A stretch of 64,000 nt of DNA, from assembly GCF_902859805.1 (NCBI RefSeq), contig NZ_CADIKC010000001.1:1798001-1862000 (forward strand). The letters run 5' to 3'. The stretch's first letter is position 1; every line of letters begins with the position of its first letter. This document shows positions 2,479-49,137 of the stretch, in pieces. The stretch comes from Paraburkholderia sediminicola. Its GTDB lineage: Bacteria; Pseudomonadota; Gammaproteobacteria; Burkholderiales; Burkholderiaceae. Both the position numbers and the translations under genes were made by a program. The notes beneath the pieces were generated by a model that had not been told where the DNA came from, ran no database searches, and worked only from the letters and a program-made list of their open reading frames with translations.

Positions 2479-4936
2479 CGACATCGTGGCGGTGCGTGAT
2501 GATGAACATGGGCTTGAGCCCATGCGTACGCAATCGGTCGATAACGGCGAAAAATCCGGCGCTGGGATGTACCGATCGGAACGGTATCAATGGCCCGTAC
2601 GAACGCAAACGGGCGACGCAGCCGCTATGGCCTATGCGGACCTGATGGTTGAGACCGGCCACGAGCGCGACGGCACGATGACAACGTGGCAATACCGTGT
2701 GCGGCTGGAGCACAACGAGGTTCCAGCGTGCGATGACCACGTCGAGCCTGGTGCGCCTTTGCTGGTGTACCGGCACGCTCAGACGTCCGTGGCCGTCGAA
2801 GCGTCGGCGGCCCGGACAATTCCTGTTCACGCGCATGCATTTGCTCGCGAATCGTTCATCGACGAACTCGCCCATGCGCTGCAACGCGACCCTGTCGCGT
2901 TGCGCCTGCAGCACCTCGACGCGCAGCGTGACGGCGGCGCGCGCGAAACGATCCGCATGGTAACTGAGCGTGCCGCGTGGGGCGGGGCGCTTGCGGCTCG
3001 GGTTGATCCGGCTTCGCCCTGGGTGCGCGGACGCGGCTTCGCGTTCGACGGCGAAGCGCTTGAACACAGCGCGCCGCTATCGTCGGATGAGAAGGGCAGC
3101 TTGCCTGTGCGCGTCACGACGGGAACGTCGAATCCGGGTGCCGATAGCTGGACAGCATGGGTCGTGGACGTCGACGTGAATCGTGAGACTGGCGATGTCG
3201 CGATCAGGCGCGTGGTTGCGGGCCGCGGTTCGGGCGATCCGGGTGCCGAGCACGTCTCGGGCTTGCCATCATGGCAGGTGGCCGATGCGATCGAGCGCTC
3301 CACCGGCGTGCGCTTTCTTGCCCGTTCATCCCACGATGAAACCGGCTCGGCGAACGGCGATGCCGCGGTGTCGCATGAACTGAGCGTGCCGGGAAGCGTG
3401 CTGAACGAGTCGACTGCCGGGACGGCGCGGACCTTGACGCGCGCGGAGGCCGACACGATGGAGCGTGCTGCCGCGCCCGCCGCGGCCGCGATTGCGAACG
3501 CCTTGTTCGACGCCACCGGCGTGCGTTTTCGTGCACCCCCGTTCGACGCGGAGCGCATCCGCCGCGCGTTGGCTGAAGCACCTCCCGCTACGTTGGCTGA
3601 GGCGCCTGCGCAAATGCGTCGTCCGTCGCGTTGGCGGCGCTGGTTGGCCGGGGGCGGTATTGGTGGCGTGATGGGCGGTTTGATCGGCCTCGCCTGCTCG
3701 GTCCTGCCGGGGCCGGCGCCAATCGCACCGATTGCCACCATCGACACGTCGCTGTGGTCGCCGGCCACGCTCGAACGCGGGCGTCAGATCGCCGCCGCGG
3801 GCGATTGCGCGGTCTGCCACACCGCGCCGGGCGGCAAGACCAATGCCGGCGGCTTCGCGCTCGACACGCCGTTCGGCACCGTCTACTCGACCAATCTCAC
3901 GCCCGATGTGCAGACCGGCATCGGCGCCTGGTCATATGAAGCGTTTGCGCGGGCGATGCGTGAAGGTGTGTCGCGCGACGGCTCGCATCTTTATCCGGCG
4001 TTTCCGTACACCGCGTTCGCCCGGATGAGCGAGTCCGACATGATGGCGCTCTACGCGTATCTGATGTCGCAAGCGCCGGTCAAAAACGCACCACCGAAAA
4101 CGAGCTTGCCGTTCCCGCTCAATCAAAGACGGCTGGTGGCCGGATGGAACTGGCTGTTTCATGACACACGTCCGTTCGTCCCTGACGAGACGCGCTCGGC
4201 GCAGTGGAATCGCGGCAAGTATCTGGTCGACGGCGCGGGGCATTGCGGCGCGTGTCATACACCGCGCAATGCGATCGGCGCGGAGAAGGGCGGTTTTGCG
4301 TATCTGTCGGGCGGGAGCGCGGAAGGCTGGGACGCGCCGTCACTGGTGGCCTCGCGTGCGTCGCCGGTGCCGTGGTCCGAGGCTGCGCTGTTCGACTATT
4401 TGCGCACCGGCTTTTCTGCGGAACACGGTGTAGCGGCGGGGCCGATGGCGCCGGTCGTTGCCGGGCTCGCTACGCTGCCGGAATCCGACGTACGTGCGAT
4501 GGCTCACTACGTCGCGTCGTTGTCGCCACCCGTTGACGCGGAGGTGTCTGCCCGTGCTGCGGCCGTGCGTGCGAATGCTACAGACGCGGGCTCGACGACG
4601 ACACTTGGTTTCGAAAACGGCCGCCGCATTTTCGAAGCATCGTGCGCTGTTTGTCATGCGGAATCGGGCGGCGTCGGCCATTTCGGCGTGCGCCCGTTGA
4701 TGGGGCTGAACACGAGCGTTGCCCAGGCCTCACCGGACAATCTTCTGCACGTGTTGCAACACGGAATCGATCAGCCCGCAACGGAATCGCTGGGCTACAT
4801 GCCCGGATTCGGTGATGTATTCGACGACAGGCAGATGGCCGAGCTCGCGTCGTATATCCGCGCGCGTTACGCGCCGGGGCAGCCGGCCTGGCGCGATCTC
4901 GAGTCAGCGTCGGCAAGATTGCGCGCGGGACACTAG
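2450..4936 (+). CDS. nicB: NicB-like triheme cytochrome c with truncated molybdopterin domain
   Basis: 828 residues. Residues about 60-390 resemble only the C-terminal half of the molybdopterin subunit of isoquinoline/nicotinate dehydrogenases: a FARESFIDELAHALQRDPV stretch, a VVDVDVNRETGDV strand and an IANALFDATGVRFR tail. A Glu (in DTMERAA) stands at the spacing expected for the catalytic GVGE Glu, but the GVGE context is gone. A hydrophobic segment follows near 400-425, then three heme c sites: CAVCH 453-457, CGACH 599-603, CAVCH 732-736. Full NicB proteins are near 1,190 residues, so roughly 350 N-terminal residues are absent. An ATG at 2462 has AAGG 5 bases upstream and may be the real start. 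The stop overlaps the convergent TetR gene. Confidence 0.75.
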   Translation: MKVRMNQHGDDIVAVRDDEHGLEPMRTQSVDNGEKSGAGMYRSERYQWPVRTQTGDAAAMAYADLMVETGHERDGTMTTWQYRVRLEHNEVPACDDHVEPGAPLLVYRHAQTSVAVEASAARTIPVHAHAFARESFIDELAHALQRDPVALRLQHLDAQRDGGARETIRMVTERAAWGGALAARVDPASPWVRGRGFAFDGEALEHSAPLSSDEKGSLPVRVTTGTSNPGADSWTAWVVDVDVNRETGDVAIRRVVAGRGSGDPGAEHVSGLPSWQVADAIERSTGVRFLARSSHDETGSANGDAAVSHELSVPGSVLNESTAGTARTLTRAEADTMERAAAPAAAAIANALFDATGVRFRAPPFDAERIRRALAEAPPATLAEAPAQMRRPSRWRRWLAGGGIGGVMGGLIGLACSVLPGPAPIAPIATIDTSLWSPATLERGRQIAAAGDCAVCHTAPGGKTNAGGFALDTPFGTVYSTNLTPDVQTGIGAWSYEAFARAMREGVSRDGSHLYPAFPYTAFARMSESDMMALYAYLMSQAPVKNAPPKTSLPFPLNQRRLVAGWNWLFHDTRPFVPDETRSAQWNRGKYLVDGAGHCGACHTPRNAIGAEKGGFAYLSGGSAEGWDAPSLVASRASPVPWSEAALFDYLRTGFSAEHGVAAGPMAPVVAGLATLPESDVRAMAHYVASLSPPVDAEVSARAAAVRANATDAGSTTTLGFENGRRIFEASCAVCHAESGGVGHFGVRPLMGLNTSVAQASPDNLLHVLQHGIDQPATESLGYMPGFGDVFDDRQMAELASYIRARYAPGQPAWRDLESASARLRAGH

Positions 4937-5556
4937 CGCCGTCCGAGCAAATACGCGGTAGTCATCTCCACCAGCTCCCGCTTAAGGACTGGCGTTCCCA
5001 ACGTGCCTCTGTGCGCGGCATCATGAATGACGCCCGAAACGGCAGAGGAAAGGACTTGCGCGGCCACTGCGACTGATTCCCGGCCGCGCCGGTTCCCCGC
5101 CGCCGCGACCATCGCGGTGTAGCGCCGGAGATACTCCGTTTCGAACTTGTCGTGAGCGGGCTTCAGGCCTTCAATGTAGGGCGCCTCCTCAAGCAGCACG
5201 CGATGCAGTGCGGGATTGATGTTATGGACTCCGATCATGCCGTGGACCAGTTGCTCGATGCGCCACGCAATTGGCATCGTGTCATCGTCGATCGCGCGTA
5301 GTACTGCAAGAACCTCGTCGAAGTGACGCGTGGTGATTGCCACCACCAACACGTTCTTGTTCGGAAAGTACTGATACAACGAGCCAATGCTCACACCGGC
5401 GACTTCGGCGACCTCGTTGGTCGTGAATCGAGCCCAGCCCCAGCGCCCCAAAACCTGAGCACCCGCCGTGAGAATAGCCTCGACCGTGGCGCGCGAACGC
5501 GCTTGCCGTGGGGCTTTGCGCATCGTTGCAGCGTGCGTGGGAATGCGAGTAGCCAA
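4933..5556 (-). CDS. TetR/AcrR family regulator
   Basis: 207 residues with an N-terminal TetR helix-turn-helix (about residues 20-65; TTNEVAEVAGVSIGSLYQYF) and a helical ligand-binding domain. It is convergent with nicB, the two stop codons overlapping, and divergent from the MDR reductase gene. P. putida uses the TetR protein NicS to control nicAB, so this could be its counterpart. The best palindrome nearby, however, is in front of the MDR gene, which makes that gene or autoregulation the better-supported target. Confidence 0.85.
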   Translation of the reverse strand: MATRIPTHAATMRKAPRQARSRATVEAILTAGAQVLGRWGWARFTTNEVAEVAGVSIGSLYQYFPNKNVLVVAITTRHFDEVLAVLRAIDDDTMPIAWRIEQLVHGMIGVHNINPALHRVLLEEAPYIEGLKPAHDKFETEYLRRYTAMVAAAGNRRGRESVAVAAQVLSSAVSGVIHDAAHRGTLGTPVLKRELVEMTTAYLLGRR

Positions 5557-5573
5557 ATCACCGCCCTCAAGGG

Positions 5574-5596
5574 AATATGAGCCCCATGCTCACATT
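5574..5596. promoter_or_regulatory. Candidate TetR operator
   Basis: A 23-base inverted repeat with half-sites AAT-n-TGAGC and GCTCA-n-ATT around a 5-base centre, in the 91-base gap between the divergent TetR and MDR genes. Size and position suit a TetR dimer site. Binding is inferred. Confidence 0.5.
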
Positions 5597-5647
5597 AATC
5601 GGCGAGCTTGACAACAGTGTGCTTGCCCGCCTTACGAGGACATCCTG

Positions 5648-6679
5648 ATGACTGCTATACCTGACACCTGCCGCGAAATTCGATTGAAAGTCAGACCTGA
5701 TGGCCTGCCCGGTGCCGAAAACTTCGAAATCGTTTCGATTCCGTTGCCGATTCCCGCAGACGACGAGGTGCTTGTCCGCAACTGTTATTTCCTCGTATCG
5801 GCCTCGTTGCGCATGATGATCAGCAAAGGGGCCGAAGACGTGGAAGGTGTGCCGTTTCCCGCGCTACGTGAGGGCGACGCACTCGCAGGGGAAGCGCTGG
5901 GCGAAATCGTCTCAGCGCCTGCAAACAGTGGTTTTTCTCCCGGCGACCTGGTTCTGCATTTCCAGGGTTGGCGCGAATACGCGACGGTGCCCATCGCACA
6001 ATGCCGGCCTGTCGAGCCTGGATTGCCTGACCCGGTCGGCTATCTTGGGCATGGATGGACGGCTTATGCGGCGCTCACGCGTGGTGTGCAGATCCGGCCT
6101 GGCGATACGGTATTCGTTTCCAGTGCTGCGGGCGCGATCGGTTCGATGGCCGGACAGATTGCGCGCTTGCTCGGTGCGAAGCGAGTTATCGGCAGCACCA
6201 GTTCCAAAGAAAAGGCAGCCCGCCTTGTGTCCGAGTTAGGGTATGACGCGGCGGTGTTCCGCGGGGCTGCACCGATCGTTGAGCAACTCGCGGCAGCCGC
6301 CCCTCAAGGCATCGACGTCATTATCGATAATGTCGGAGGCGAGCAGTTGCAAGCGGCCATCGCCAACGCACGCGTTGGTGCGCGTGTTGTGATTCTCGGC
6401 GCACTGTCGGGGCAATTGGTGGCTGAGGGCCCCGGCCGAATCGCACCGGTCGAACTGGATTCCATGCAGCTTCTTCTGAAGAAGATTACGTTGCGCGGCT
6501 ACAGCGCCGACGATGATCCGCACATGCACGCAGAGTGGATCAGCCGGTTTGCCGATTGGCTGGACGCAGGCAGCATTCGCTTTCCACGCGAAATCATTAC
6601 TGGACTCGAATGCGCGCCGCAGGCCTTGGCGCGCGTGATCAACGGGGAATGCTTTGGGACGGTAGTCGTGAGGCTATAA
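5648..6679 (+). CDS. Zinc-independent MDR oxidoreductase (NADPH-dependent)
   Basis: 343 residues of the leukotriene B4 12-hydroxydehydrogenase / alkenal reductase branch (COG2130) of the medium-chain dehydrogenases. The N-terminal GroES-like part lacks zinc ligands. The Rossmann part shows VFVSSAAGAIGSMAGQIA (about residues 155-175), AKRVIGSTSS after the second strand, and DVIIDNVGGE. Such enzymes reduce activated double bonds of enals, enones or quinones with NADPH. GAGGA about 6 bases before the ATG supports the start. It is divergent from the TetR gene and probably under its control. Physiological substrate not evident. Confidence 0.88.
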   Translation: MTAIPDTCREIRLKVRPDGLPGAENFEIVSIPLPIPADDEVLVRNCYFLVSASLRMMISKGAEDVEGVPFPALREGDALAGEALGEIVSAPANSGFSPGDLVLHFQGWREYATVPIAQCRPVEPGLPDPVGYLGHGWTAYAALTRGVQIRPGDTVFVSSAAGAIGSMAGQIARLLGAKRVIGSTSSKEKAARLVSELGYDAAVFRGAAPIVEQLAAAAPQGIDVIIDNVGGEQLQAAIANARVGARVVILGALSGQLVAEGPGRIAPVELDSMQLLLKKITLRGYSADDDPHMHAEWISRFADWLDAGSIRFPREIITGLECAPQALARVINGECFGTVVVRL

Positions 6680-42149: not shown

Positions 42150-44312
42150 TCAGAACGAGAACGTTGTATTGAGCATCACCAGACGCGCCTCGCCGACCGC
42201 AATGATCAGATTGCTGTTGCTTGACGGGTAATACGTCTTGTCGAAGACGTTCTTCACGTTGAGTTGCACGCGCGTTGGAATCTTGCCGATCTTCGTTTCG
42301 TAGGCGGCGAATAGATCGGCGACGACATAGCCCGGCAGCGTAAAGCTGTTTGCCGTATCACCCGGGCGCTTTCCGACCAGTCGCGCACCGCCGCCGAAAC
42401 GCCATTGCCCCGGCAGATAGGGCAGCATCGTGTCGTACACGGCAAACACGCTGCCGCTATGGCGCGGGGCATTCACGAGACGCGTGTTGTCTTCGCGGTC
42501 GACGGCGTCCGTGTAGGCATAACTCGCAATCACGCTGACATGCCGTGTCAGCTGACCGGCGACATCGAGTTCGATCCCGCGTGAACGTGCGCTGCCGATT
42601 GTCGACGTCGTATCGCCGACGGTGACCGCGACATTCTGCTTGTCGATCTGATAGACCGCGAGCGTGCCTGTAATGCCGGGCTTCGCTTCGAATTTCAAAC
42701 CGGCTTCGTAGACCCGGCCGCGCTCGGGTGCGAGGGGCTCGCTGACCTCCGTGGCGACGTTCGGCACGAACGACTTGCTGAAGTTCGCATAGGCAGACAA
42801 CGCGGGCGTGAGCTTGTACACCAACCCGAACTGCGGCAGCCACACTTGCCCGTGCGAGTGATCGGCGATGACGAATGGGCGCCCCACGCCGGAAAGTTGC
42901 TGCCAGTTTTCCCAGCGCACACCGCCGACGGCAATCAGACGGTCGGTCAGGTGGACCGTGTCCTGCGTAAGCAGCGAGTACGTATGGACCTTCGAGAGGC
43001 TGTCGCTTTGCGACGCGCTCGCTGTGCCGCCCGTCGAGAGCGTTCCATAGACCGGGTCGAAGAGGTCGAATCCGGACACTGCCTTGCCGCGGATGGTGTC
43101 GCCGCGGAAGGAGCGCTGGCGTTCGTATTCGCCGCCTACGTAGACTTCGTGACGCATGCCCGCGAAGTTCAGGTCGCCGACCGCGCCGATCGTGGCGATT
43201 TCATCGGAATCGTTGCGGCCAAGGTTCGCATCCGATGAGCGGCTCATGATGCCGGTCTTGCTGTTGAACGCGGTTGCACGGGTCAGGTACTGATCGTAGC
43301 GATCGCGGCTCCAACCGTAGGTGGCGCGCATGCGCCACTGATCGGAGAACCGGTGTTCGATCTTGGCCCGCAGCGTTTCCTGCTTGCCGGTACTTTGCGC
43401 CCATGCTTCTTCGTAACGGGTGTAGCGCAACGCGTCGTCCAGATGACCGTTCACGAGAACTGTCCCACGGTCGAAGGGCGTCGTGTAATCGACGTACTGG
43501 TAACTCAGATCGATCGAGGTGTTGGCATCGTGCCACGACAGTGACGGCGCGATTAGCGCGTCGCGCTGCCGTCCGAAGCTGCGCCAGTAACGCGCGGTGT
43601 TGTATTCACCGGTCAGCCGGAAGGCCAGTGTTCCTCCCGCCACCTGACCCGGTTGTCCGATCGGGCCGGTGAGGTCGAAGCTGGTTCCGCTGCCACGGTG
43701 GCTGGTGTACGTCGCCGATACCGAGCCGTGCAGTTCGTCCTCCGGTTTGCGCGTGATCATGTTGATCACACCGCCCGGTTGCTGAATGCCGTACAGCAGC
43801 GAAGCCGGCCCCTTCAATACTTCGACACGATCGATCGTGGCCAGATAGCTGTGCAGGATCGGCGATCGAATGCCGTCGACAAGGATCGAGCCGTCGTTGT
43901 TCGAGCCGAAGCCACGCTTGATGAACGCATCGCGTGTTCCGCCGAGCGTGTTGGTCTGGGTGACGCCGCTGACGTTGCCAAGCACATCGTCGAGACTCCG
44001 CGCCTGCTGATCCTGCATCACGCTCGAACTGACTACCGCGACAGACTGCGGAATCTCGCTGATTTTCCGTTCGCCACCGCCGGATATCTGGCTGGTGAGC
44101 GGGCGATAGCCGATCGTCGGTTCGAGGTCCGGTGCGGCGTGCACCGAAACCGCCGGCAACTCTTTCTCTGCGGGCGTTTGATCGCTGGTGACGTCGGCCG
44201 AGGCGCCGATGGCGGGATGCGTCGAAGCTGCGTACATCAGGAAAGCTATGTGCAGACCGAAGCCGAAACGGCGGTGACGCCCCGGGAGCCCGGAAATTCG
44301 CAGAAGACGCAT
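42150..44312 (-). CDS. TonB-dependent siderophore receptor
   Basis: 720 residues: signal peptide, plug domain with EIPQSVAVVSSSVMQDQ and RVEVLKGPASLLYGIQQPGGVINMITRKP, and a 22-strand barrel ending in LVMLNTTFSF with terminal Phe. It belongs to the ferrichrome/hydroxamate-type receptor family (FhuE/FpvA-like) but has no N-terminal STN domain, so no transmembrane signalling is expected. A Fur-box-like site lies about 95 bases upstream. It imports a ferric siderophore, possibly xenosiderophore, since no synthesis genes are nearby. Confidence 0.92.
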   Translation of the reverse strand: MRLLRISGLPGRHRRFGFGLHIAFLMYAASTHPAIGASADVTSDQTPAEKELPAVSVHAAPDLEPTIGYRPLTSQISGGGERKISEIPQSVAVVSSSVMQDQQARSLDDVLGNVSGVTQTNTLGGTRDAFIKRGFGSNNDGSILVDGIRSPILHSYLATIDRVEVLKGPASLLYGIQQPGGVINMITRKPEDELHGSVSATYTSHRGSGTSFDLTGPIGQPGQVAGGTLAFRLTGEYNTARYWRSFGRQRDALIAPSLSWHDANTSIDLSYQYVDYTTPFDRGTVLVNGHLDDALRYTRYEEAWAQSTGKQETLRAKIEHRFSDQWRMRATYGWSRDRYDQYLTRATAFNSKTGIMSRSSDANLGRNDSDEIATIGAVGDLNFAGMRHEVYVGGEYERQRSFRGDTIRGKAVSGFDLFDPVYGTLSTGGTASASQSDSLSKVHTYSLLTQDTVHLTDRLIAVGGVRWENWQQLSGVGRPFVIADHSHGQVWLPQFGLVYKLTPALSAYANFSKSFVPNVATEVSEPLAPERGRVYEAGLKFEAKPGITGTLAVYQIDKQNVAVTVGDTTSTIGSARSRGIELDVAGQLTRHVSVIASYAYTDAVDREDNTRLVNAPRHSGSVFAVYDTMLPYLPGQWRFGGGARLVGKRPGDTANSFTLPGYVVADLFAAYETKIGKIPTRVQLNVKNVFDKTYYPSSNSNLIIAVGEARLVMLNTTFSF

Positions 44313-44404
44313 GTGTCAGGAGACCGCCTGCCGACCCACGCGAGAACGCGGAAAGGTAGTTGTAGCGGTGGGTCAAGGGTTATGAAAGAGATCGGATGTT
44401 AATG

Positions 44405-44428
44405 CAAATGGGAATCGTTATCAATAAC
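44405..44428 (-). promoter_or_regulatory. Candidate Fur box
   Basis: Reading on the minus strand, TTATTGATAACGATTCCCAT resembles the GATAATGATAATCATTATC Fur consensus. It lies 93 bases upstream of the siderophore receptor start. A Fur repressor would silence the gene when iron is plentiful. Confidence 0.55.
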
Positions 44429-44500
44429 GACCAAAAAAATAAGGCGGTGAGCAGGCGTTGCCAGTCCGATCGGGTTGTCGATCGACGTCTTCGAGGAGGT

Positions 44501-44935
44501 TCAGTCGAGGTGTTCGTTACGTGATGGGTCTGGCTTTAGGGTGCACGTTTCGTCTGCACATGTAGAGCCGGTTCCTAGTCCGATCCATCTGGAAACGCTC
44601 ATGCGATTGCGGGCGAACATGCGGTATAGAAGCCGGAAGGTGGGGCGCATGACCGGTACGCGCAACGGTGCAACCATCCATCCTCTGCCGGCCAGCGTAT
44701 AGGCGGCGACTATGCTGTCTATCCCCACGAGGCACCGTCCCTCAGCCGTCCGGGCGTGCAACTGCCGATTGAGCGCAGCCAGGTCGACGCCGAGCGGCGC
44801 CGGATCGAAGCCCGGCTGCGCGATATCGATGAACGCAAGCTTGCTATGCCGATCCCACGCGCGCAGTCGCTTCATTTCGGCAACGCATAGCGGGCACTTT
44901 ACGTCGATGTACAACGTCAGTGAAGCGATCTTCAT
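44501..44935 (-). CDS. DCC-family thiol-disulfide protein (DUF393)
   Basis: 144 residues. Opens with TLYIDVKCPLCVAEMKRLRAWDR, a thioredoxin-like strand with C-P-L-C and the DCC-type layout; later GRCLVGIDSIVAAYTL and a C-terminal helical part. Such proteins are presumed redox partners but lack known substrates. AAGGAG precedes the start. It is divergent from the GbsR gene and its promoter contains operator 1 of that regulator. Confidence 0.85.
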   Translation of the reverse strand: MKIASLTLYIDVKCPLCVAEMKRLRAWDRHSKLAFIDIAQPGFDPAPLGVDLAALNRQLHARTAEGRCLVGIDSIVAAYTLAGRGWMVAPLRVPVMRPTFRLLYRMFARNRMSVSRWIGLGTGSTCADETCTLKPDPSRNEHLD

Positions 44936-44961
44936 GGCAAATTCTCCTTGCTGTTCGTTCA

Positions 44962-44987
44962 GTTGTTTCTGTCAAGAGAGAAATTAA
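44962..44987. promoter_or_regulatory. GbsR/MarR operator 1, upstream of DCC gene
   Basis: GTTGTTTCT, 8 bases, AGAAATTAA. Same layout as the two other sites, with two mismatches. On the minus strand it contains TTGACA, a good -35 box for the DCC gene, 27 bases upstream of the DCC start. Confidence 0.65.
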
Positions 44988-45011
44988 GTCGACCTGAGCC
45001 CACCGTCAAGC

Positions 45012-45037
45012 GTTATTTCTCTCTTGACAGAAATAAC
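45012..45037. promoter_or_regulatory. GbsR/MarR operator 2, upstream of regulator gene
   Basis: GTTATTTCT, 8 bases, AGAAATAAC, perfect half-sites. TTGACA (45024-45029) inside it suits a -35 element, and TAAAGT at 45047-45052 (17-base spacer) a -10, leaving a very short leader before the ATG at 45060. Confidence 0.7.
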
Positions 45038-45059
45038 TGAAAAAAATAAAGTCACTGAC

Positions 45060-45590
45060 ATGGAACTCACACCAATTACCGAACGATTCATTCTCCACTG
45101 GGGCGAAATGGGCTCGCGCTGGGGCGTCAACCGCACCGTCGCGCAGATTCATGCGTTGCTGTATCTGCTCGGCCGCCCTATCGCGGCGGACGAGATCGCG
45201 GACACGCTCGGTGTTGCCCGCTCCAATGTGAGCACGAGTCTGAAGGAGCTCCAATCGTGGCGCCTCGCGAAGGTGGTGCATGTGATGGGAGATCGTCGCG
45301 ACCACTTTGAAACGTCCACGGATATCTGGGAACTGTTCAAGCTGATCGTGGAAGGGCGCCGGCAACGCGAGATCGATCCGACGCTGACCATGTTGCGGGA
45401 TAGCCTGACCAGTCCGGAGATGGGGCAAGAGAGTCACGACACGGAACAACGCATTCGCGACACGTTGAAGTTTCTCGAAACGCTCACGACCTGGTCCGAT
45501 GAGATGCTGCGTATGAAGCCCGAAACGCTGATGAAGACGCTTGGCGTAGGCGCGAAGATCAGTCGTACGGTACGGCGCACCAAGAGCTAG
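45060..45590 (+). CDS. GbsR/MarR family transcriptional regulator
   Basis: 176 residues from the ATG at 45060; a TTG 36 bases upstream lies inside the -35 element of the operator and is rejected. Winged helix: VNRTVAQIHALLYLLGRPIAADEIADTLGVARSNVSTSLKELQSW, then a wing and a helical C-terminal dimer part. COG1510-like. It is flanked by DCC and SDR genes, each with the same operator, and carries its own, so autorepression plus control of both neighbours is inferred. No ribosome-binding site is visible. Confidence 0.88.
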   Translation: MELTPITERFILHWGEMGSRWGVNRTVAQIHALLYLLGRPIAADEIADTLGVARSNVSTSLKELQSWRLAKVVHVMGDRRDHFETSTDIWELFKLIVEGRRQREIDPTLTMLRDSLTSPEMGQESHDTEQRIRDTLKFLETLTTWSDEMLRMKPETLMKTLGVGAKISRTVRRTKS

Positions 45591-45600
45591 CAGAATGAGA

Positions 45601-45626
45601 TGGACGACAGGATCGTCCATTTTTTT
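45601..45626 (+). terminator. Rho-independent terminator of the regulator gene
   Basis: Perfect 7-base stem TGGACGA / TCGTCCA, 5-base loop, followed by seven T. It ends 6 bases before operator 3, cleanly insulating the regulator gene from the next operon. Confidence 0.9.
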
Positions 45627-45631
45627 GACCT

Positions 45632-45657
45632 GTTATTTCTGTTTATACAGAAATAAC
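45632..45657. promoter_or_regulatory. GbsR/MarR operator 3, upstream of leader/SDR operon
   Basis: GTTATTTCT, 8 bases, AGAAATAAC, identical half-sites to operator 2; the centre GTTTATAC extends the symmetry to 11-base arms. It is 19 bases before a 19-codon leader frame and 75 before the SDR gene. Confidence 0.75.
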
Positions 45658-45676: not shown

Positions 45677-45736
45677 ATGAGACTGTGTTCAGCGAGTGTG
45701 CCCTGTGCTGCATCTGTCGTGGAGTCCACGGTATGA
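45677..45736 (+). CDS. Possible leader peptide upstream of SDR gene
   Basis: 19 codons from ATG with AAGGGA 6 bases upstream, a better ribosome-binding site than the one of the SDR gene. Its TGA overlaps the SDR ATG (ATGA), giving translational coupling. Too short for the usual reading-frame threshold. It may be a real coupling leader or a decayed start of an earlier form of the SDR gene. Confidence 0.45.
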   Translation: MRLCSASVPCAASVVESTV

Positions 45737-46989
45737 ACATCCTGGTCTGCGGTGCGGAAGGTTTCATCGGCCGGGCGCTGTGCGACGCACTCGCACGGGA
45801 AGGGCACCGGGTGTGCAGAGGCGTGAGACACGCCACGCGCGAAGATGAAGTCGGAATCGACTACACAAGCGATGTTGCGCCGACCGATTGGCTGTCGAGA
45901 TTGCACGCTATCGATGTCGTGATCAACGCGGTCGGCATCCTGATCGAGCGGGGCGATCAGACGTTCGACCTGATCCACCGCCGTGCGCCGATCGCGCTGT
46001 TCGAGGCGGCGTCTCGTGCGGGCGTTCGGCGCATCGTTCAGGTATCTGCGCTCGGCGCGCAGACCGGCGATACGGACTACTTCGCCAGCAAGCGGGCCGC
46101 CGACGAATATCTGCAATCCTTGCCCGTCACCCACTACATCCTCCGGCCCGCTCTGGTCTATGGGACGACAGGTTCTTCGTCACGTTTCTTTCGTGCCATA
46201 GCGAGCCTGCCGGTTCATCCGTTGCCTGCCGGCGGTCATCAACTGGTGCGGCCGATTCACATCGATGAACTCGCCGAAATCGTCGCGCGACTCGTGAAGA
46301 CCGACACCGCCGATCAGCCGGTTCTTGATCTGGTAGGCGGCACGCAACTCGAGTATGGGCAAATGCTGGCGGCCTATCGCGCATCTATGGCGCTGCCTCC
46401 TGCATGGCGCGTTGGCATTCCGGCTTTCCTGGTCGATGCAGGCGCAGCGCTATTCGACCGCGTCCCCAATTCAATGCTGACACGTGACACCTGGCGAATG
46501 CTCCAGATGGGAAGCACCGGGAACGTCGCGTCGACAACGAAGCTGTTGGGGCGTCCGCCAGCAGGTCTCGAATCGTTTGTCGCGCCAGTCGACGCGATTC
46601 CGTTACGTCATGCCGCGCTGGCAGTATGGCGACCCGCCTTGCTGCGTGCCGCACTGGCGATCATGTGGATCTGGACGGCGGTCTGCAGCGCCTTTATCTA
46701 TCCGCAGGCGGCGAGTCTGGCACTGCTCGCGCGCGTGCATCTGCAGGGCGGCGCGGCGCTTGCCGTCCTCTATCTGGCGGCGGCTTTGGATTTCGCCTTT
46801 GGCATTGCCACACTCGTTCGTCCGGGACGGCGTCTCTGGGCGATGCAGATAGGGCTCGTCACTGCGTATTCGATCGTAATAGCTGTGGCGTTGCCCGAAT
46901 TCCTGTGGCATCCGTTCGGTCCGATCCTGAAGAACGTGCCGATCCTGGCTTTGCTGCTCGTTCTCTTTAGTGAAGAAACACGGTCATGA
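45733..46989 (+). CDS. SDR/NAD(P)-epimerase fused to membrane domain
   Basis: 418 residues from the ATG at 45733. The N-terminal 290 residues form an extended SDR domain: NILVCGAEGFIGRALCDAL (a GAxGFIG nucleotide motif), VNAVGILIERGD-like strand, and RIVQVSALGAQTGDTDYFASKRAAD. The last 120 residues hold four hydrophobic helices (DoxX-like), starting near LRAALAIMWIWTAVCSAFI. Such fusions recur in proteobacteria, often next to DUF2269 genes. Substrate unknown. Overlaps the DUF2269 gene by 4 bases. Confidence 0.85.
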   Translation: MNILVCGAEGFIGRALCDALAREGHRVCRGVRHATREDEVGIDYTSDVAPTDWLSRLHAIDVVINAVGILIERGDQTFDLIHRRAPIALFEAASRAGVRRIVQVSALGAQTGDTDYFASKRAADEYLQSLPVTHYILRPALVYGTTGSSSRFFRAIASLPVHPLPAGGHQLVRPIHIDELAEIVARLVKTDTADQPVLDLVGGTQLEYGQMLAAYRASMALPPAWRVGIPAFLVDAGAALFDRVPNSMLTRDTWRMLQMGSTGNVASTTKLLGRPPAGLESFVAPVDAIPLRHAALAVWRPALLRAALAIMWIWTAVCSAFIYPQAASLALLARVHLQGGAALAVLYLAAALDFAFGIATLVRPGRRLWAMQIGLVTAYSIVIAVALPEFLWHPFGPILKNVPILALLLVLFSEETRS

Positions 46990-47459
46990 ATCTCTATCTC
47001 GCGATCAAGACTCTGCACATCATTTCGTCGATGCTGCTGGTGGGAACCGGATTTGGCACGGCGTTCTATCTCTACTTTGCAAACCGCACGCGTTGCGTAC
47101 CCGCGATTGCAACCGTTTCGCAACTGGTGGTGCGGGCCGATCTCTGGTTCACTACGCCAGCCGTCATTTTTCAACCGCTGTCCGGTTTGTGGCTCGCGCA
47201 CGCCGCAGGCTGGTCGTGGAGTACGCCGTGGATTGTCGCGGCGATCGGGCTCTATCTGGTTGCGGGCGCATGTTGGTTGCCGGTCGTCTGGCTCCAGTTG
47301 GGCATGGCGAGAATGGCCGCGACCGCGAATGCAAGTGGCATGGCTGCACTACCGCCGCAGTATTGGCGATATGCCATGCACTGGGAATGGTTGGGGTATC
47401 CGGCATTCGCGGCGATGCTGGCAGTGTATTACCTGATGGTGTTCAAGCCGGCTCTGTAG
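46986..47459 (+). CDS. DUF2269 integral membrane protein
   Basis: 157 residues with four hydrophobic helices, opening MNLYLAIKTLHIISSMLLVGTGFGTAF and continuing with RADLWFTTPAVIFQPLSGLWLA. The ATG overlaps the SDR stop codon (ATGA), so the two are coupled. Conserved His11 in KTLHIISS is suggestive of heme or quinone-type ligand, but this is not established. Confidence 0.85.
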   Translation: MNLYLAIKTLHIISSMLLVGTGFGTAFYLYFANRTRCVPAIATVSQLVVRADLWFTTPAVIFQPLSGLWLAHAAGWSWSTPWIVAAIGLYLVAGACWLPVVWLQLGMARMAATANASGMAALPPQYWRYAMHWEWLGYPAFAAMLAVYYLMVFKPAL

Positions 47460-47527: not shown

Positions 47528-48565
47528 TTACTTCGCGATACGACGCTGTTGTTTTTCCAGGTCCAACCTGACTATGCGTGCCGCTGACGCCAGGTAAAGC
47601 GGCGATGGATTGCGACGCTCTTCGCAAAGACACGTGTACGTCAGCTTGATCACGTGATCGTCGTTTGACGCCAAGGCCATCCGGCACACGTCGTCCCAGT
47701 CAACGACGGCGTCAGGCGAATCTGTTTCAACCTTCGCGGGACTGCGGACCGTTGCATACGCCGCGCACAGCGCAATCCACAAGCCGGGCAGCAATTGTTC
47801 CGCCAACGCGTCAGGCAACTCTGCCAGGAGGATCCGAGCCGCGTGCGTCGCCGTAACCGTGTGAAGCACCGTGAAGTCTGGCGAGCGCCAGTAGGCACTA
47901 ATCGTCGCCCGCGCCAGATCGTCGAGTAAGGACACAGTGGCCGGAGGCGCAAGGACGGCCTGCCTGAATCGCACATCGCTTGCAACGGCGCGCAAGCGTG
48001 AGGTGATTGAGTTGCCCTGTACGACACTGTCGTCTATTGCACGCACGACCTTGTCAAACCCGGCTTCGACATTGTCTGCCGTGCGGGCCTTGTCGAAACG
48101 GGCTTCGATCGGCAGATGCGACGAGATTAACGCGGCCAGGCCGGAGGCGATCTCGCCGGCATGCGCCGCCTCGATGCCGTATGCCAAGCGGATAAGCGCG
48201 TGAAAGGCCTGCGTTGCTGGTGCGAACGGCACCTCTTTCAGCACTGCCGCGATGACCGGGACGGCGCCCGCTTCGGCGATCCAGTCCAGAAAACACAGGC
48301 GCAACGCGCCGAACGCGGCGGCATTGCCGAGTTGCCGCGACCATTCGTGACGGCTGACGATTGTGTCGACAGGCGGCGCGCTCAATGCATATTCGCGCTC
48401 CCACATATCGAAGAATTCCTGCAGTCGAGCGGGCGATGCTCCCATCCCGGCCAACGCGACAAGCGCCATCGGACAATGGTTGGTCGTGCCTCTGGCCATC
48501 AGGTCGAAGCGAGCGTTTGCATCCAGGAGCTCGTTCAATTTGAGCTTAACGGGGTCCTTGCGCAT
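47528..48565 (-). CDS. Questin oxidase-like protein (DUF4243)
   Basis: 345 residues matching the questin oxidase/AflY-like family: NHCPMALVALAGMGASPARLQEFFDMWE near residue 28 in pieces, and HALIRLAYGIEAAHAGEIASGLA near 122. Fungal members cleave anthraquinones by a Baeyer-Villiger-type reaction; bacterial ones are uncharacterised. It is divergent from soxR, and its promoter carries a SoxR box between -35 and -10 elements with a 19-base spacer. A short leader with AGAGACGG precedes the start. Confidence 0.82.
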   Translation of the reverse strand: MRKDPVKLKLNELLDANARFDLMARGTTNHCPMALVALAGMGASPARLQEFFDMWEREYALSAPPVDTIVSRHEWSRQLGNAAAFGALRLCFLDWIAEAGAVPVIAAVLKEVPFAPATQAFHALIRLAYGIEAAHAGEIASGLAALISSHLPIEARFDKARTADNVEAGFDKVVRAIDDSVVQGNSITSRLRAVASDVRFRQAVLAPPATVSLLDDLARATISAYWRSPDFTVLHTVTATHAARILLAELPDALAEQLLPGLWIALCAAYATVRSPAKVETDSPDAVVDWDDVCRMALASNDDHVIKLTYTCLCEERRNPSPLYLASAARIVRLDLEKQQRRIAK

Positions 48566-48627: not shown

Positions 48628-48648
48628 GAGAGAATTCGTGGAAACGTG

Positions 48649-49137
48649 ATGAACGAGACGACGATTACAATTGGTGAACTGGCCAGGCGCTCGGGCGTCG
48701 CGGCGAGTGCGATTCGTTTTTATGAGGAACAGGGGCTGATCAACAGTACCCGAACAGAAGGTGGTCATCGGCAGTATCGAAGGGAAGTCCTTCGCCGCGT
48801 CGGGTTTATCCGCGCCGCGCAGGCTGTCGGCCTGAACCTTTCGGAGATTCGTTCTGCCCTTGAGACGTTGCCCGGGCAACGCACGCCGACCAGGCAGGAT
48901 TGGCAACGTCTCTCGCGCGCCTGGCAGCCTTTGCTGCAGGAGCGTATAGACGGTCTTATTGCATTGCGCGATCAGCTCGCGTCCTGTGTCGGCTGCGGAT
49001 GCCTTTCGCTGAAGTCCTGTTCTCTCTACAATCCCGGCGATGTTGCCCGGCGACGGGGAAGCGGTGCGCGATATCTGCTGGGCGACACCTCGCGCGCGGT
49101 GTTGGCGGACGATATCGCGGATAAGCAGAAGACGTGA
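48649..49137 (+). CDS. soxR: Redox-sensitive regulator SoxR
   Basis: 162 residues from the ATG at 48649 (a GTG just before is possible). MerR winged helix: TIGELARRSGVAASAIRFYEEQGLI, RTEGGHRQYRREVLRRV, then a dimer helix and a Cys cluster CVGCGCLSLKSC in the C-x2-C-x-C-x5-C layout of the SoxR [2Fe-2S] site. Redox-active compounds oxidise the cluster and turn on target promoters. The box upstream sits in the promoter of the divergent questin-oxidase-like gene. Confidence 0.95.
   Translation: MNETTITIGELARRSGVAASAIRFYEEQGLINSTRTEGGHRQYRREVLRRVGFIRAAQAVGLNLSEIRSALETLPGQRTPTRQDWQRLSRAWQPLLQERIDGLIALRDQLASCVGCGCLSLKSCSLYNPGDVARRRGSGARYLLGDTSRAVLADDIADKQKT

What the first reader, a model, noticed from the sequence alone, without database searches (positions are those of the whole stretch)
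44962..45657. Three-operator GbsR/MarR regulon: DCC thiol protein, regulator, SDR-membrane fusion
One 26-base motif, GTTATTTCT-N8-AGAAATAAC, occurs in front of all three transcription units of a compact locus (44962, 45012, 45632), twice with identical half-sites. The regulator gene has its own strong terminator immediately before operator 3. Together DCC thiol protein, SDR-DoxX-like fusion and DUF2269 suggest a membrane redox or small-molecule system whose function is not described.
Basis: partly seen in the sequence, partly recalled or inferred. Interest (0 to 1): 0.7.

Follow-up and report, generated by a model that had tools for sequence, protein, structure and literature searches.

The report
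Cytochrome-bd-type repressor controlling redox membrane genes
This bacterial locus carries three copies of one DNA palindrome, one in front of each predicted transcription unit, where a regulator of the family that includes cytochrome bd repressors is predicted to bind and to hold back a likely membrane redox gene set that our paper searches did not turn up.

Summary
In detail: three palindromes, none expected by chance, no others at <=2 mismatches in the 8.64-Mb genome. Relatives make it a real regulon. A site precedes the regulator in 124 of 127 rows beside the gene set, against 1 of 1275 control windows. Operator 1 occurs in 8 of 8 loci with a divergent DCC gene, 0 of 72 without. Four sites lie just upstream of set genes in genomes whose regulator is elsewhere. 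The regulator's clade is sister to regulators encoded before cydA, the kind of CydE and CioR; CydE's published footprint has the same layout. The clades differ by one symmetric base: mostly TTTCTG-N6-CAGAAA here, TTTCAG-N6-CTGAAA before cydA (42 of 42 scored). The SDR domain is closest to complex I NDUFA9; DUF2269 resembles HemJ. Best reading: an autoregulated repressor of a quinone-linked, NAD(P)H-dependent membrane redox module. The regulatory half is well supported by comparison; binding, enzyme function and inducer are inferred.

The parts
44962..44987 (.).
   Evidence: a site there (>=16 of 22) in 8 of 8 loci with a divergent DCC gene, 0 of 72 without
45012..45037 (.). Operator 2, upstream of the regulator; holds the -35 TTGACA of the regulator's predicted promoter
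   Evidence: 124 of 127 module-labelled rows have an upstream site scoring 11-12 of 12
45632..45657 (.). Operator 3, upstream of the SDR-DoxX gene; with its flanks a perfect inverted repeat (13-nt arms, 4-nt centre)
   Evidence: a site scoring >=11 lies just after the regulator gene in 53 of 78 representative module loci
44958..45041 (.). Inverted repeat made by operators 1 and 2 (27-nt arms, 96% complementary, 30 nt between)
45024..45052 (+). Predicted sigma-70 promoter of the regulator, TTGACA-17-TAAAGT
   Evidence: consensus match only; number of such hits is at chance level
45597..45627 (+). Hairpin with T-run after the regulator gene, predicted intrinsic terminator
   Evidence: z -3.7; not listed by the scan
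44501..44935 (-). DCC1-like thiol-disulfide oxidoreductase (PF04134), CPLC motif; C14, C17 and C131 conserved
45060..45590 (+). GbsR/MarR-type regulator (PF12802); its clade is sister to regulators encoded before cydA
45733..46989 (+). NDUFA9-like SDR fused to a DoxX-like membrane domain (PF01370/PF13460 + PF13781); GxxGxxG and YxxxK kept
   Evidence: model pLDDT 92
46986..47459 (+). DUF2269 four-helix membrane protein (PF10027), HemJ-like profile, H11 98% conserved; overlaps the SDR gene by 4 bases
   Evidence: model pLDDT 91

Best explanation
Three palindromes stand before the three predicted transcription units of a conserved locus, and the regulator encoded between them, whose clade is sister to regulators encoded directly before cytochrome bd genes, is predicted to bind all three and so would repress itself, the DCC gene and the SDR-DoxX/DUF2269 operon. 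Step by step: (1) the palindrome, its place and its link to regulator and module are shown by the sequences. (2) That this regulator reads it is inferred from co-occurrence, from the footprinted CydE site of the same layout, and from the match between regulator clade and operator letter. (3) Repression by blocking the promoter is inferred: operator 2 contains the predicted -35 box, and both studied relatives, CydE and CioR, are autorepressors. (4) The two clades likely avoid cross-talk by a symmetric T/A swap at position 5 of each half-site; residues of the recognition-helix region that separate the clades (A53, T/N59, S60 here; S53, M/I59, G60 in the cyd clade) are the candidate readers. (5) The products would form or serve a quinone-linked membrane redox unit: an NDUFA9-like SDR domain that would bind NAD(P)H, tied to a DoxX-like membrane domain; a HemJ-like DUF2269 protein that may carry heme; and a DCC thiol protein. 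(6) The inducer is unknown; by analogy it would appear when the normal oxidase chain is hindered. Steps 5 and 6 are the weak ones.
For: Motif not by chance. Moves with genes: operator 1 in 8 of 8 loci with divergent DCC and 0 of 72 without; upstream sites scoring >=11 of 12 in 124 of 127 module rows and 42 of 51 cyd rows (75 of 78 and 32 of 36 after thinning at 88% identity). Genome scale: 49 exact TTTCTGT-N4-ACAGAAA sites in 33 of 300 genomes of the order, 39 within 1 kb of a regulator homolog, of which 34 module-labelled, 5 unlabelled, 0 cyd-labelled; four more lie 38 to about 160 bp upstream of SDR-, SDR-like or DoxX-type genes in genomes whose regulator is elsewhere. Sister clade: deepest split of the midpoint-rooted tree, SH-aLRT 99, one change of partner; W14, H31, A53 in 127 of 127 module rows against F14, Y31, S53 in 51 of 51 cyd rows. 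CydE footprint TATTTCAGAAATTTCTGAAAGTTCA = TTTCAG-N6-CTGAAA (PMC6096048, passages). Letter switch: T/A 108 of 124 here, A/T 42 of 42 before cydA; of 24 genomes with both clades, 21 have A/T at the cyd site and not at the module site, 17 the strict T/A against A/T. SDR: best profile hit 9g83_P E 7.7e-34; the 15 sequences at E<=1e-20 are all subunits of complex I or respiratory supercomplexes; same by fold. DUF2269 versus HemJ: hhalign probability 86%, score 40 over 129 columns; 60 column shuffles at most 7% and 23.
Against: No binding, expression or enzyme data. CydE and CioR themselves were not placed in the tree; their names did not appear in the 120 proteins listed for a cyd-type query, so 'sister of CydE/CioR' rests on gene neighbourhood and the CydE footprint. 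16 of 124 module operators are not T/A (10 A/A, 3 A/T, 3 T/T), so the code leaks on the module side; 9 of 51 cyd rows had no site scoring 11. Five of 49 exact sites lie at neither regulator nor module, and the reversed control pattern hits 3 of 300 genomes. The converse scan TTTCAGT-N4-ACTGAAA is weaker: 13 sites, 8 at a regulator (7 cyd-type, 1 module-type), reversed control in 7 genomes. This genome has three CydA homologs but one regulator homolog, so shared control with cytochrome bd is not seen here. The DUF2269/SDR set occurs without regulator or motif in other genomes. NDUFA9 itself has no shown activity; its NADPH is thought structural (PMC8762328, passages). DUF2269 finds no confident fold match in the PDB and no PDB sequence match at E<=1.
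Confidence: 0.6

Rival explanations
1. The regulator reading is right, but the module is a small-molecule or lipid reductase, not a respiratory side branch: the SDR reduces a membrane-dissolved carbonyl, with DUF2269 and DoxX as membrane partners.
For: SDR keeps GxxGxxG in 34 of 34 rows and Y and K of YxxxK in 33 and 34 of 34. In L284, L287 and L294, loci without the motif, DUF2269 sits beside other dehydrogenase-like ORFs (read from the ORF letters, not scanned). Variants carry another SDR with an N-terminal membrane part, DUF1731 type in the one scanned (L137).
Against: The closest solved relatives of the SDR are complex I subunits, not small-molecule reductases; the studied relatives of the regulator serve terminal oxidases and its sister clade stands before cydA.
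Confidence: 0.3
2. SDR-DoxX with DUF2269 is an assembly or stabilising factor for a membrane oxidase or complex I under stress, with NAD(P)H bound only structurally and DCC handling thiols.
For: NDUFA9 acts in complex I assembly with a structural NADPH (PMC8762328 passages); the SDR domain is NDUFA9-like.
Against: The YxxxK motif is nearly invariant, which a purely structural domain would not need, though the aligned part of 9g83_P also has it; the neighbour clustering showed no family fixed beside the module (its members were not named there).
Confidence: 0.12
3. The palindromes are the sites of another, unlinked regulator, or act as RNA hairpins.
For: Only comparative evidence links regulator and site; operator 3 lies after a terminator and could lie in a leader RNA.
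Against: The operator letter follows the regulator clade; the exact core is absent from 20 of 20 DUF2269 loci, 18 of them from genomes without a regulator hit; CydE is footprinted on the same layout.
Confidence: 0.04

Closest known systems
CydE of Alishewanella sp. WH16-1 (PMC6096048; passages seen, among them parts of the abstract)
   Same: GbsR-type regulator, autoregulated, footprinted palindrome TTTCAG-N6-CTGAAA with the same spacing
   Different: Target is cydEAB; operator letter 5 is A/T. Sulfate reported as derepressor there; nothing known here. Protein not compared directly
CioR of Chromobacterium violaceum (PMC11837568; passages and section 8 seen)
   Same: GbsR-type repressor of its own operon, which serves a membrane redox system
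   Different: Target is cytochrome bd cioAB; cyanide induces through CioR though not directly, Zn and Fe stop DNA binding. Protein not compared directly
GbsR/OpuAR osmostress regulators (PMC6207618; section 16 part 1 of 2 and passages seen)
   Same: Same broad family
   Different: Choline/betaine targets; NCBIfam CudC model scores 47 bits against a cut-off of 218. The words epimerase, short-chain and burkholder do not occur in that text
NDUFA9 (39-kDa) subunit of complex I
   Same: SDR fold and sequence of roughly the first 260 residues
   Different: Here fused to a DoxX-like membrane domain, with no complex I gene among the Pfam-named neighbours in the window
HemJ / UPF0093 protoporphyrinogen oxidase
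   Same: Profile similarity over the full length, TM1 K-x-x-HI, C-terminal KP
   Different: Not hit by PF03653; the genome has its own HemJ elsewhere

Membership tests
GbsR/CydE-type regulators | MarR-type winged helix (PF12802 over its cut-off) | tested here: met
   35.3 bits, cut-off 27
GbsR/CydE-type regulators | Upstream palindrome with the layout of the CydE footprint, TTTCWG-N6-CWGAAA | tested here: met
   operator 2 of the window fits 11 of 12; binding itself not tested
CydE/CioR proper | Lies directly before cydAB/cioAB | tested here: not met
   neighbours are DCC and SDR-DoxX; the three CydA homologs lie on contigs C4, C5 and C20, the locus on C1
CydE/CioR proper | Falls in the clade of regulators before cydA, with its class residues and A/T operator letter | tested here: not met
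   CydE and CioR themselves not in the tree
Osmostress GbsR (CudC/GbsR) | Over the NCBIfam CudC cut-off | tested here: not met
   47.1 of 218 bits
Osmostress GbsR (CudC/GbsR) | Aromatic cage for choline/betaine | not tested
   feature named in PMC6207618; residues not mapped here
NDUFA9-like SDR | Best match to NDUFA9 chains by sequence and fold | tested here: met
NDUFA9-like SDR | Part of complex I | not testable with these tools
   needs biochemistry
HemJ (UPF0093) | Profile similarity above shuffled controls | tested here: met
   hhalign 86%, score 40.3; 60 shuffles at most 7.3% and 23.1
HemJ (UPF0093) | Match to PF03653 over its cut-off | tested here: not met
   only PF10027 listed
HemJ (UPF0093) | TM1 histidine | tested here: met
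   H11 in 98% of 92 rows, aligned with the HemJ His; that it binds heme is recalled, not shown
DCC1-like (DUF393) | PF04134 over cut-off and CxxC motif | tested here: met
   74.5 of 27.8 bits; C14 and C17 in 97% and 95% of 65 rows

The most novel reading that the evidence does not exclude
A repressor of cytochrome bd was duplicated and re-aimed at a second respiratory device: a quinone-linked NAD(P)H module built from an NDUFA9-like SDR-DoxX protein, a HemJ-like heme protein and a DCC thiol protein. The two paralogous regulons were insulated by a single symmetric base swap in the operator, and both now run side by side in many genomes of the order.
Probability: 0.3. Interest if true: 0.75.

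Novelty: new variant of a known kind. Interest (0 to 1): 0.58.

Why it matters
It gives a function-bearing context to DUF2269 and SDR-DoxX proteins; DUF2269 occurs in 45 of 229 sampled genomes of the class yet only two held papers name it. It offers an easily tested case of how paralogous repressors keep their operators apart: one base pair per half-site against two or three residues near the recognition helix. And it points to an unstudied membrane redox system tied by descent of its regulator to cytochrome bd.

Tried and rejected

Counting notes: the 194 regulator rows include four genes fetched twice (L145=L086, L146=L104, L147=L122, L148=L124) and the window's own gene (L084); and the tree thin at 88% identity. 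Labels module/cyd rest on tblastn hits within 3.5 kb; 16 rows, partly on short loci, stay 'none', and ten of these were put on a side by the tree. Of the matches, five (G438, G509, G479, G255, G327) were not fetched, so 68 of 73 genomes were tallied. HemJ profile: 29 of 30 fetched loci (L215 left out for an in-frame stop). DUF989 profile: 17 of 18 long hits (L252 left out).

Full report
What is there. The motif is exact at 45012 and 45632 and has three mismatches at 44962; 100 shuffles of the window give none, and the whole 8.64-Mb genome has no other site at up to two mismatches. Site 3 lies in a perfect inverted repeat with 13-nt arms, and sites 1 and 2 together form a 27-nt inverted repeat. 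Site 2 contains the -35 TTGACA of the regulator's predicted promoter (TTGACA-17-TAAAGT; the number of such hits in the region is at chance level). A hairpin with a T-run separates the regulator gene from site 3 (-15 kcal/mol, z -3.7; not listed by the scan). Pfam names the genes as DCC1-like, MarR_2, Epimerase/NAD_binding_10 plus DoxX_3, and DUF2269. The nearest named regulators in the protein search are from Paraburkholderia (about 95% identity), so the window is probably from that genus or near it (inference).

The sites move with the genes. In 72 of the 80, regulator, SDR and DUF2269 hits stand in the locus, with DCC either divergent, or between regulator and SDR, or at the end. A site matching at least 15 of 22 bases stands 36-56 bp before the regulator in 76 of 80 and just after it in 73 of 80. 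The strongest internal test is operator 1: all 8 loci with a divergent DCC gene have a site (16 of 22 or better) near -98, and none of the other 72 has one. So each transcription unit has its own operator, and the operator comes and goes with the unit.

Whole genomes. Of 300 genomes of the order, 73 hold a regulator homolog at E <= 1e-20. The exact core TTTCTGT-N4-ACAGAAA has 49 sites in 33 of the 300; the reversed control pattern hits 3 genomes. Of the 49, 39 lie within 1 kb of a regulator homolog. Of the ten others, five lie in four loci with module genes (L135 twice, L136, L137, L139). Four of these sites are 38 to about 160 bp upstream of a gene: a separate DoxX part (L135), an SDR without DoxX (L136), a membrane-SDR of another type (L137) and an SDR-DoxX gene (L139), in genomes whose regulator lies elsewhere; the fifth is 0.7 kb away. 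Five lie at neither (L138, L141-L144). Among 20 DUF2269 loci taken, 18 of them from genomes without a regulator hit, none carries the exact core.

The sister clade. One search showed that more distant regulator homologs stand directly before a cytochrome bd subunit I gene (Cyt_bd_oxida_I in the two scanned). Two such regulators have been studied: CydE, which represses cydEAB and was footprinted on TATTTCAGAAATTTCTGAAAGTTCA (PMC6096048, passages), and CioR, which represses cioRAB (PMC11837568, passages and section 8). The CydE site reads TTTCAG-N6-CTGAAA, the same layout as ours. I could not place these two proteins themselves: a search from a cyd-type regulator did not list them among its 120 shown rows. 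I labelled 194 regulator rows by neighbours: 127 module, 51 cyd, 16 neither. In a tree of 127 representatives and the window, the branch at the midpoint root (length 0.41, SH-aLRT 99) splits 36 cyd and 3 unlabelled rows from 79 module and 10 unlabelled rows, and one change of partner explains the module and cyd labels. The root is drawn for display only, so which partner came first is open.

The operator code. An upstream site matching at least 11 of 12 core positions (A or T allowed at the fifth) is found in 124 of 127 module rows and 42 of 51 cyd rows; control windows of the named loci give 1 of 1275 and shuffled upstream stretches 3 of 3860. At the fifth position of the half-sites, module operators read T/A in 108 of 124, A/A in 10, A/T in 3 and T/T in 3; cyd operators read A/T in 42 of 42. 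After thinning: T/A 61 of 75 (A/A 9, A/T 3, T/T 2), A/T 32 of 32. Four protein positions separate the classes completely (W14/F14, H31/Y31, A53/S53, I or V96/L96), and the recognition-helix region adds mostly T/N59 against M/I59 and S60 against G60. Twenty-four of 68 tallied genomes hold both classes; in 21 of the 24 the cyd site reads A/T and the module site does not, in 17 the strict T/A against A/T holds. The reverse scan, TTTCAGT-N4-ACTGAAA, found 13 sites in 13 of 300 genomes, 7 beside cyd-type regulators, 1 beside a module-side regulator (L117) and 5 elsewhere, with a control of 7 genomes (read); it agrees but is weak alone.

The products. The SDR profile hits chain 9g83_P of an alphaproteobacterial respiratory supercomplex best (E 7.7e-34), and the 15 sequences at E <= 1e-20 are all subunits of complex I or such supercomplexes; Foldseek with the model (pLDDT 92) ranks the same kind first. 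The alignment keeps GxxGxxG in 34 of 34, S105 and K120 in 34 of 34 and Y116 in 33 of 34 rows. NDUFA9 binds NADPH over the mouth of the quinone tunnel but has no shown activity (PMC8762328, passages). DUF2269 is predicted as four long helices (pLDDT 91) with K8, H11, R34, D52, C96 and K154 nearly invariant. Its profile aligns end to end with HemJ (hhalign 86%, E 5e-6 for one comparison, score 40.3); 60 column shuffles reach at most 7.3% and 23.1, the reversed profile 0.1%, DoxX 0.1%, DUF989 18%. The genome has a HemJ elsewhere. That HemJ carries b-type heme is taken from a title in a reference list and from recall.

How it most likely works. In the resting state the regulator dimer would sit on all three operators; at operator 2 it would cover the -35 box, giving autorepression as in CydE and CioR. 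When its unknown signal appears, it would let go, and DCC, regulator and the SDR-DoxX/DUF2269 operon would rise together. The signal is likely of the kind that hinders normal respiration, by analogy with cyanide for CioR and sulfate for CydE; nothing here tests it. The proteins would then move electrons between NAD(P)H and the quinone pool or a membrane substrate. I put the regulatory part at about 0.85 and the respiratory reading of the enzymes at 0.3 to 0.45; the 0.6 filed for the explanation is weighted to its regulatory core.

Against it. There is no experiment. The genome has three CydA homologs but one regulator homolog, so in this organism cytochrome bd is not under a close paralog. DUF2269 and SDR-DoxX genes exist without this regulator in other genomes, so the link to respiration comes from the regulator's ancestry and from remote homology, not from fixed neighbours. 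NDUFA9-like SDRs may be structural. The letter code leaks in 16 of 124 module operators.

Novelty. The family (GbsR-type repressors with this palindrome) is known; this clade, its target set and the letter switch did not come up in paper searches, whose listings are capped. The GbsR survey of 2018 counts 34 of 179 regulators beside cydAB and 73 without an interpretable context (PMC6207618, section 16 part 1). I file it as a new variant of a known kind.

Noticed in passing
window 42150-44312 and 44400-44430: TonB-dependent siderophore receptor gene (TIGR01783, 353 bits) on the minus strand; the stretch before it (GGGAATCGTTATCAATAAC) looks like a Fur box (recalled motif).
   Followed up: no
window 47528-48565 and 48646-49137: A Questin oxidase-like gene and a SoxR-type regulator (TIGR01950, 207 bits) follow the locus; no tblastn hit to either is among those printed for the 80 named loci.
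   Followed up: partly
window 45677-45736: A 19-codon ORF (two Cys) between operator 3 and SDR overlaps the SDR start as ATGA; relatives have short overlapping ORFs of different sequence, possibly translational coupling.
   Followed up: partly
L087, L091, L092, L137: Module variants with an SDR that has an N-terminal membrane part; the one scanned (L137) also has DUF1731.
   Followed up: partly
L085, L088, L094, L100, L159: A recurring ~125-aa membrane-like protein lies between regulator and SDR; the one scanned (L088) has no Pfam match.
   Followed up: partly
L114, L116, L135, L136: In this group of genomes the DoxX part and the SDR part are separate genes instead of a fusion.
   Followed up: partly
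L148 (G394), 4610-5899: The regulator gene lies just downstream of what reads like a cbb3 oxidase CcoP gene (ORF letters only), while an SDR gene with its palindrome lies on another contig (L136).
   Followed up: no
L284, L287, L294: DUF2269 without the motif sits beside saccharopine-dehydrogenase-like ORFs (and, in L287, a DCC-like ORF); read from letters, not scanned.
   Followed up: no
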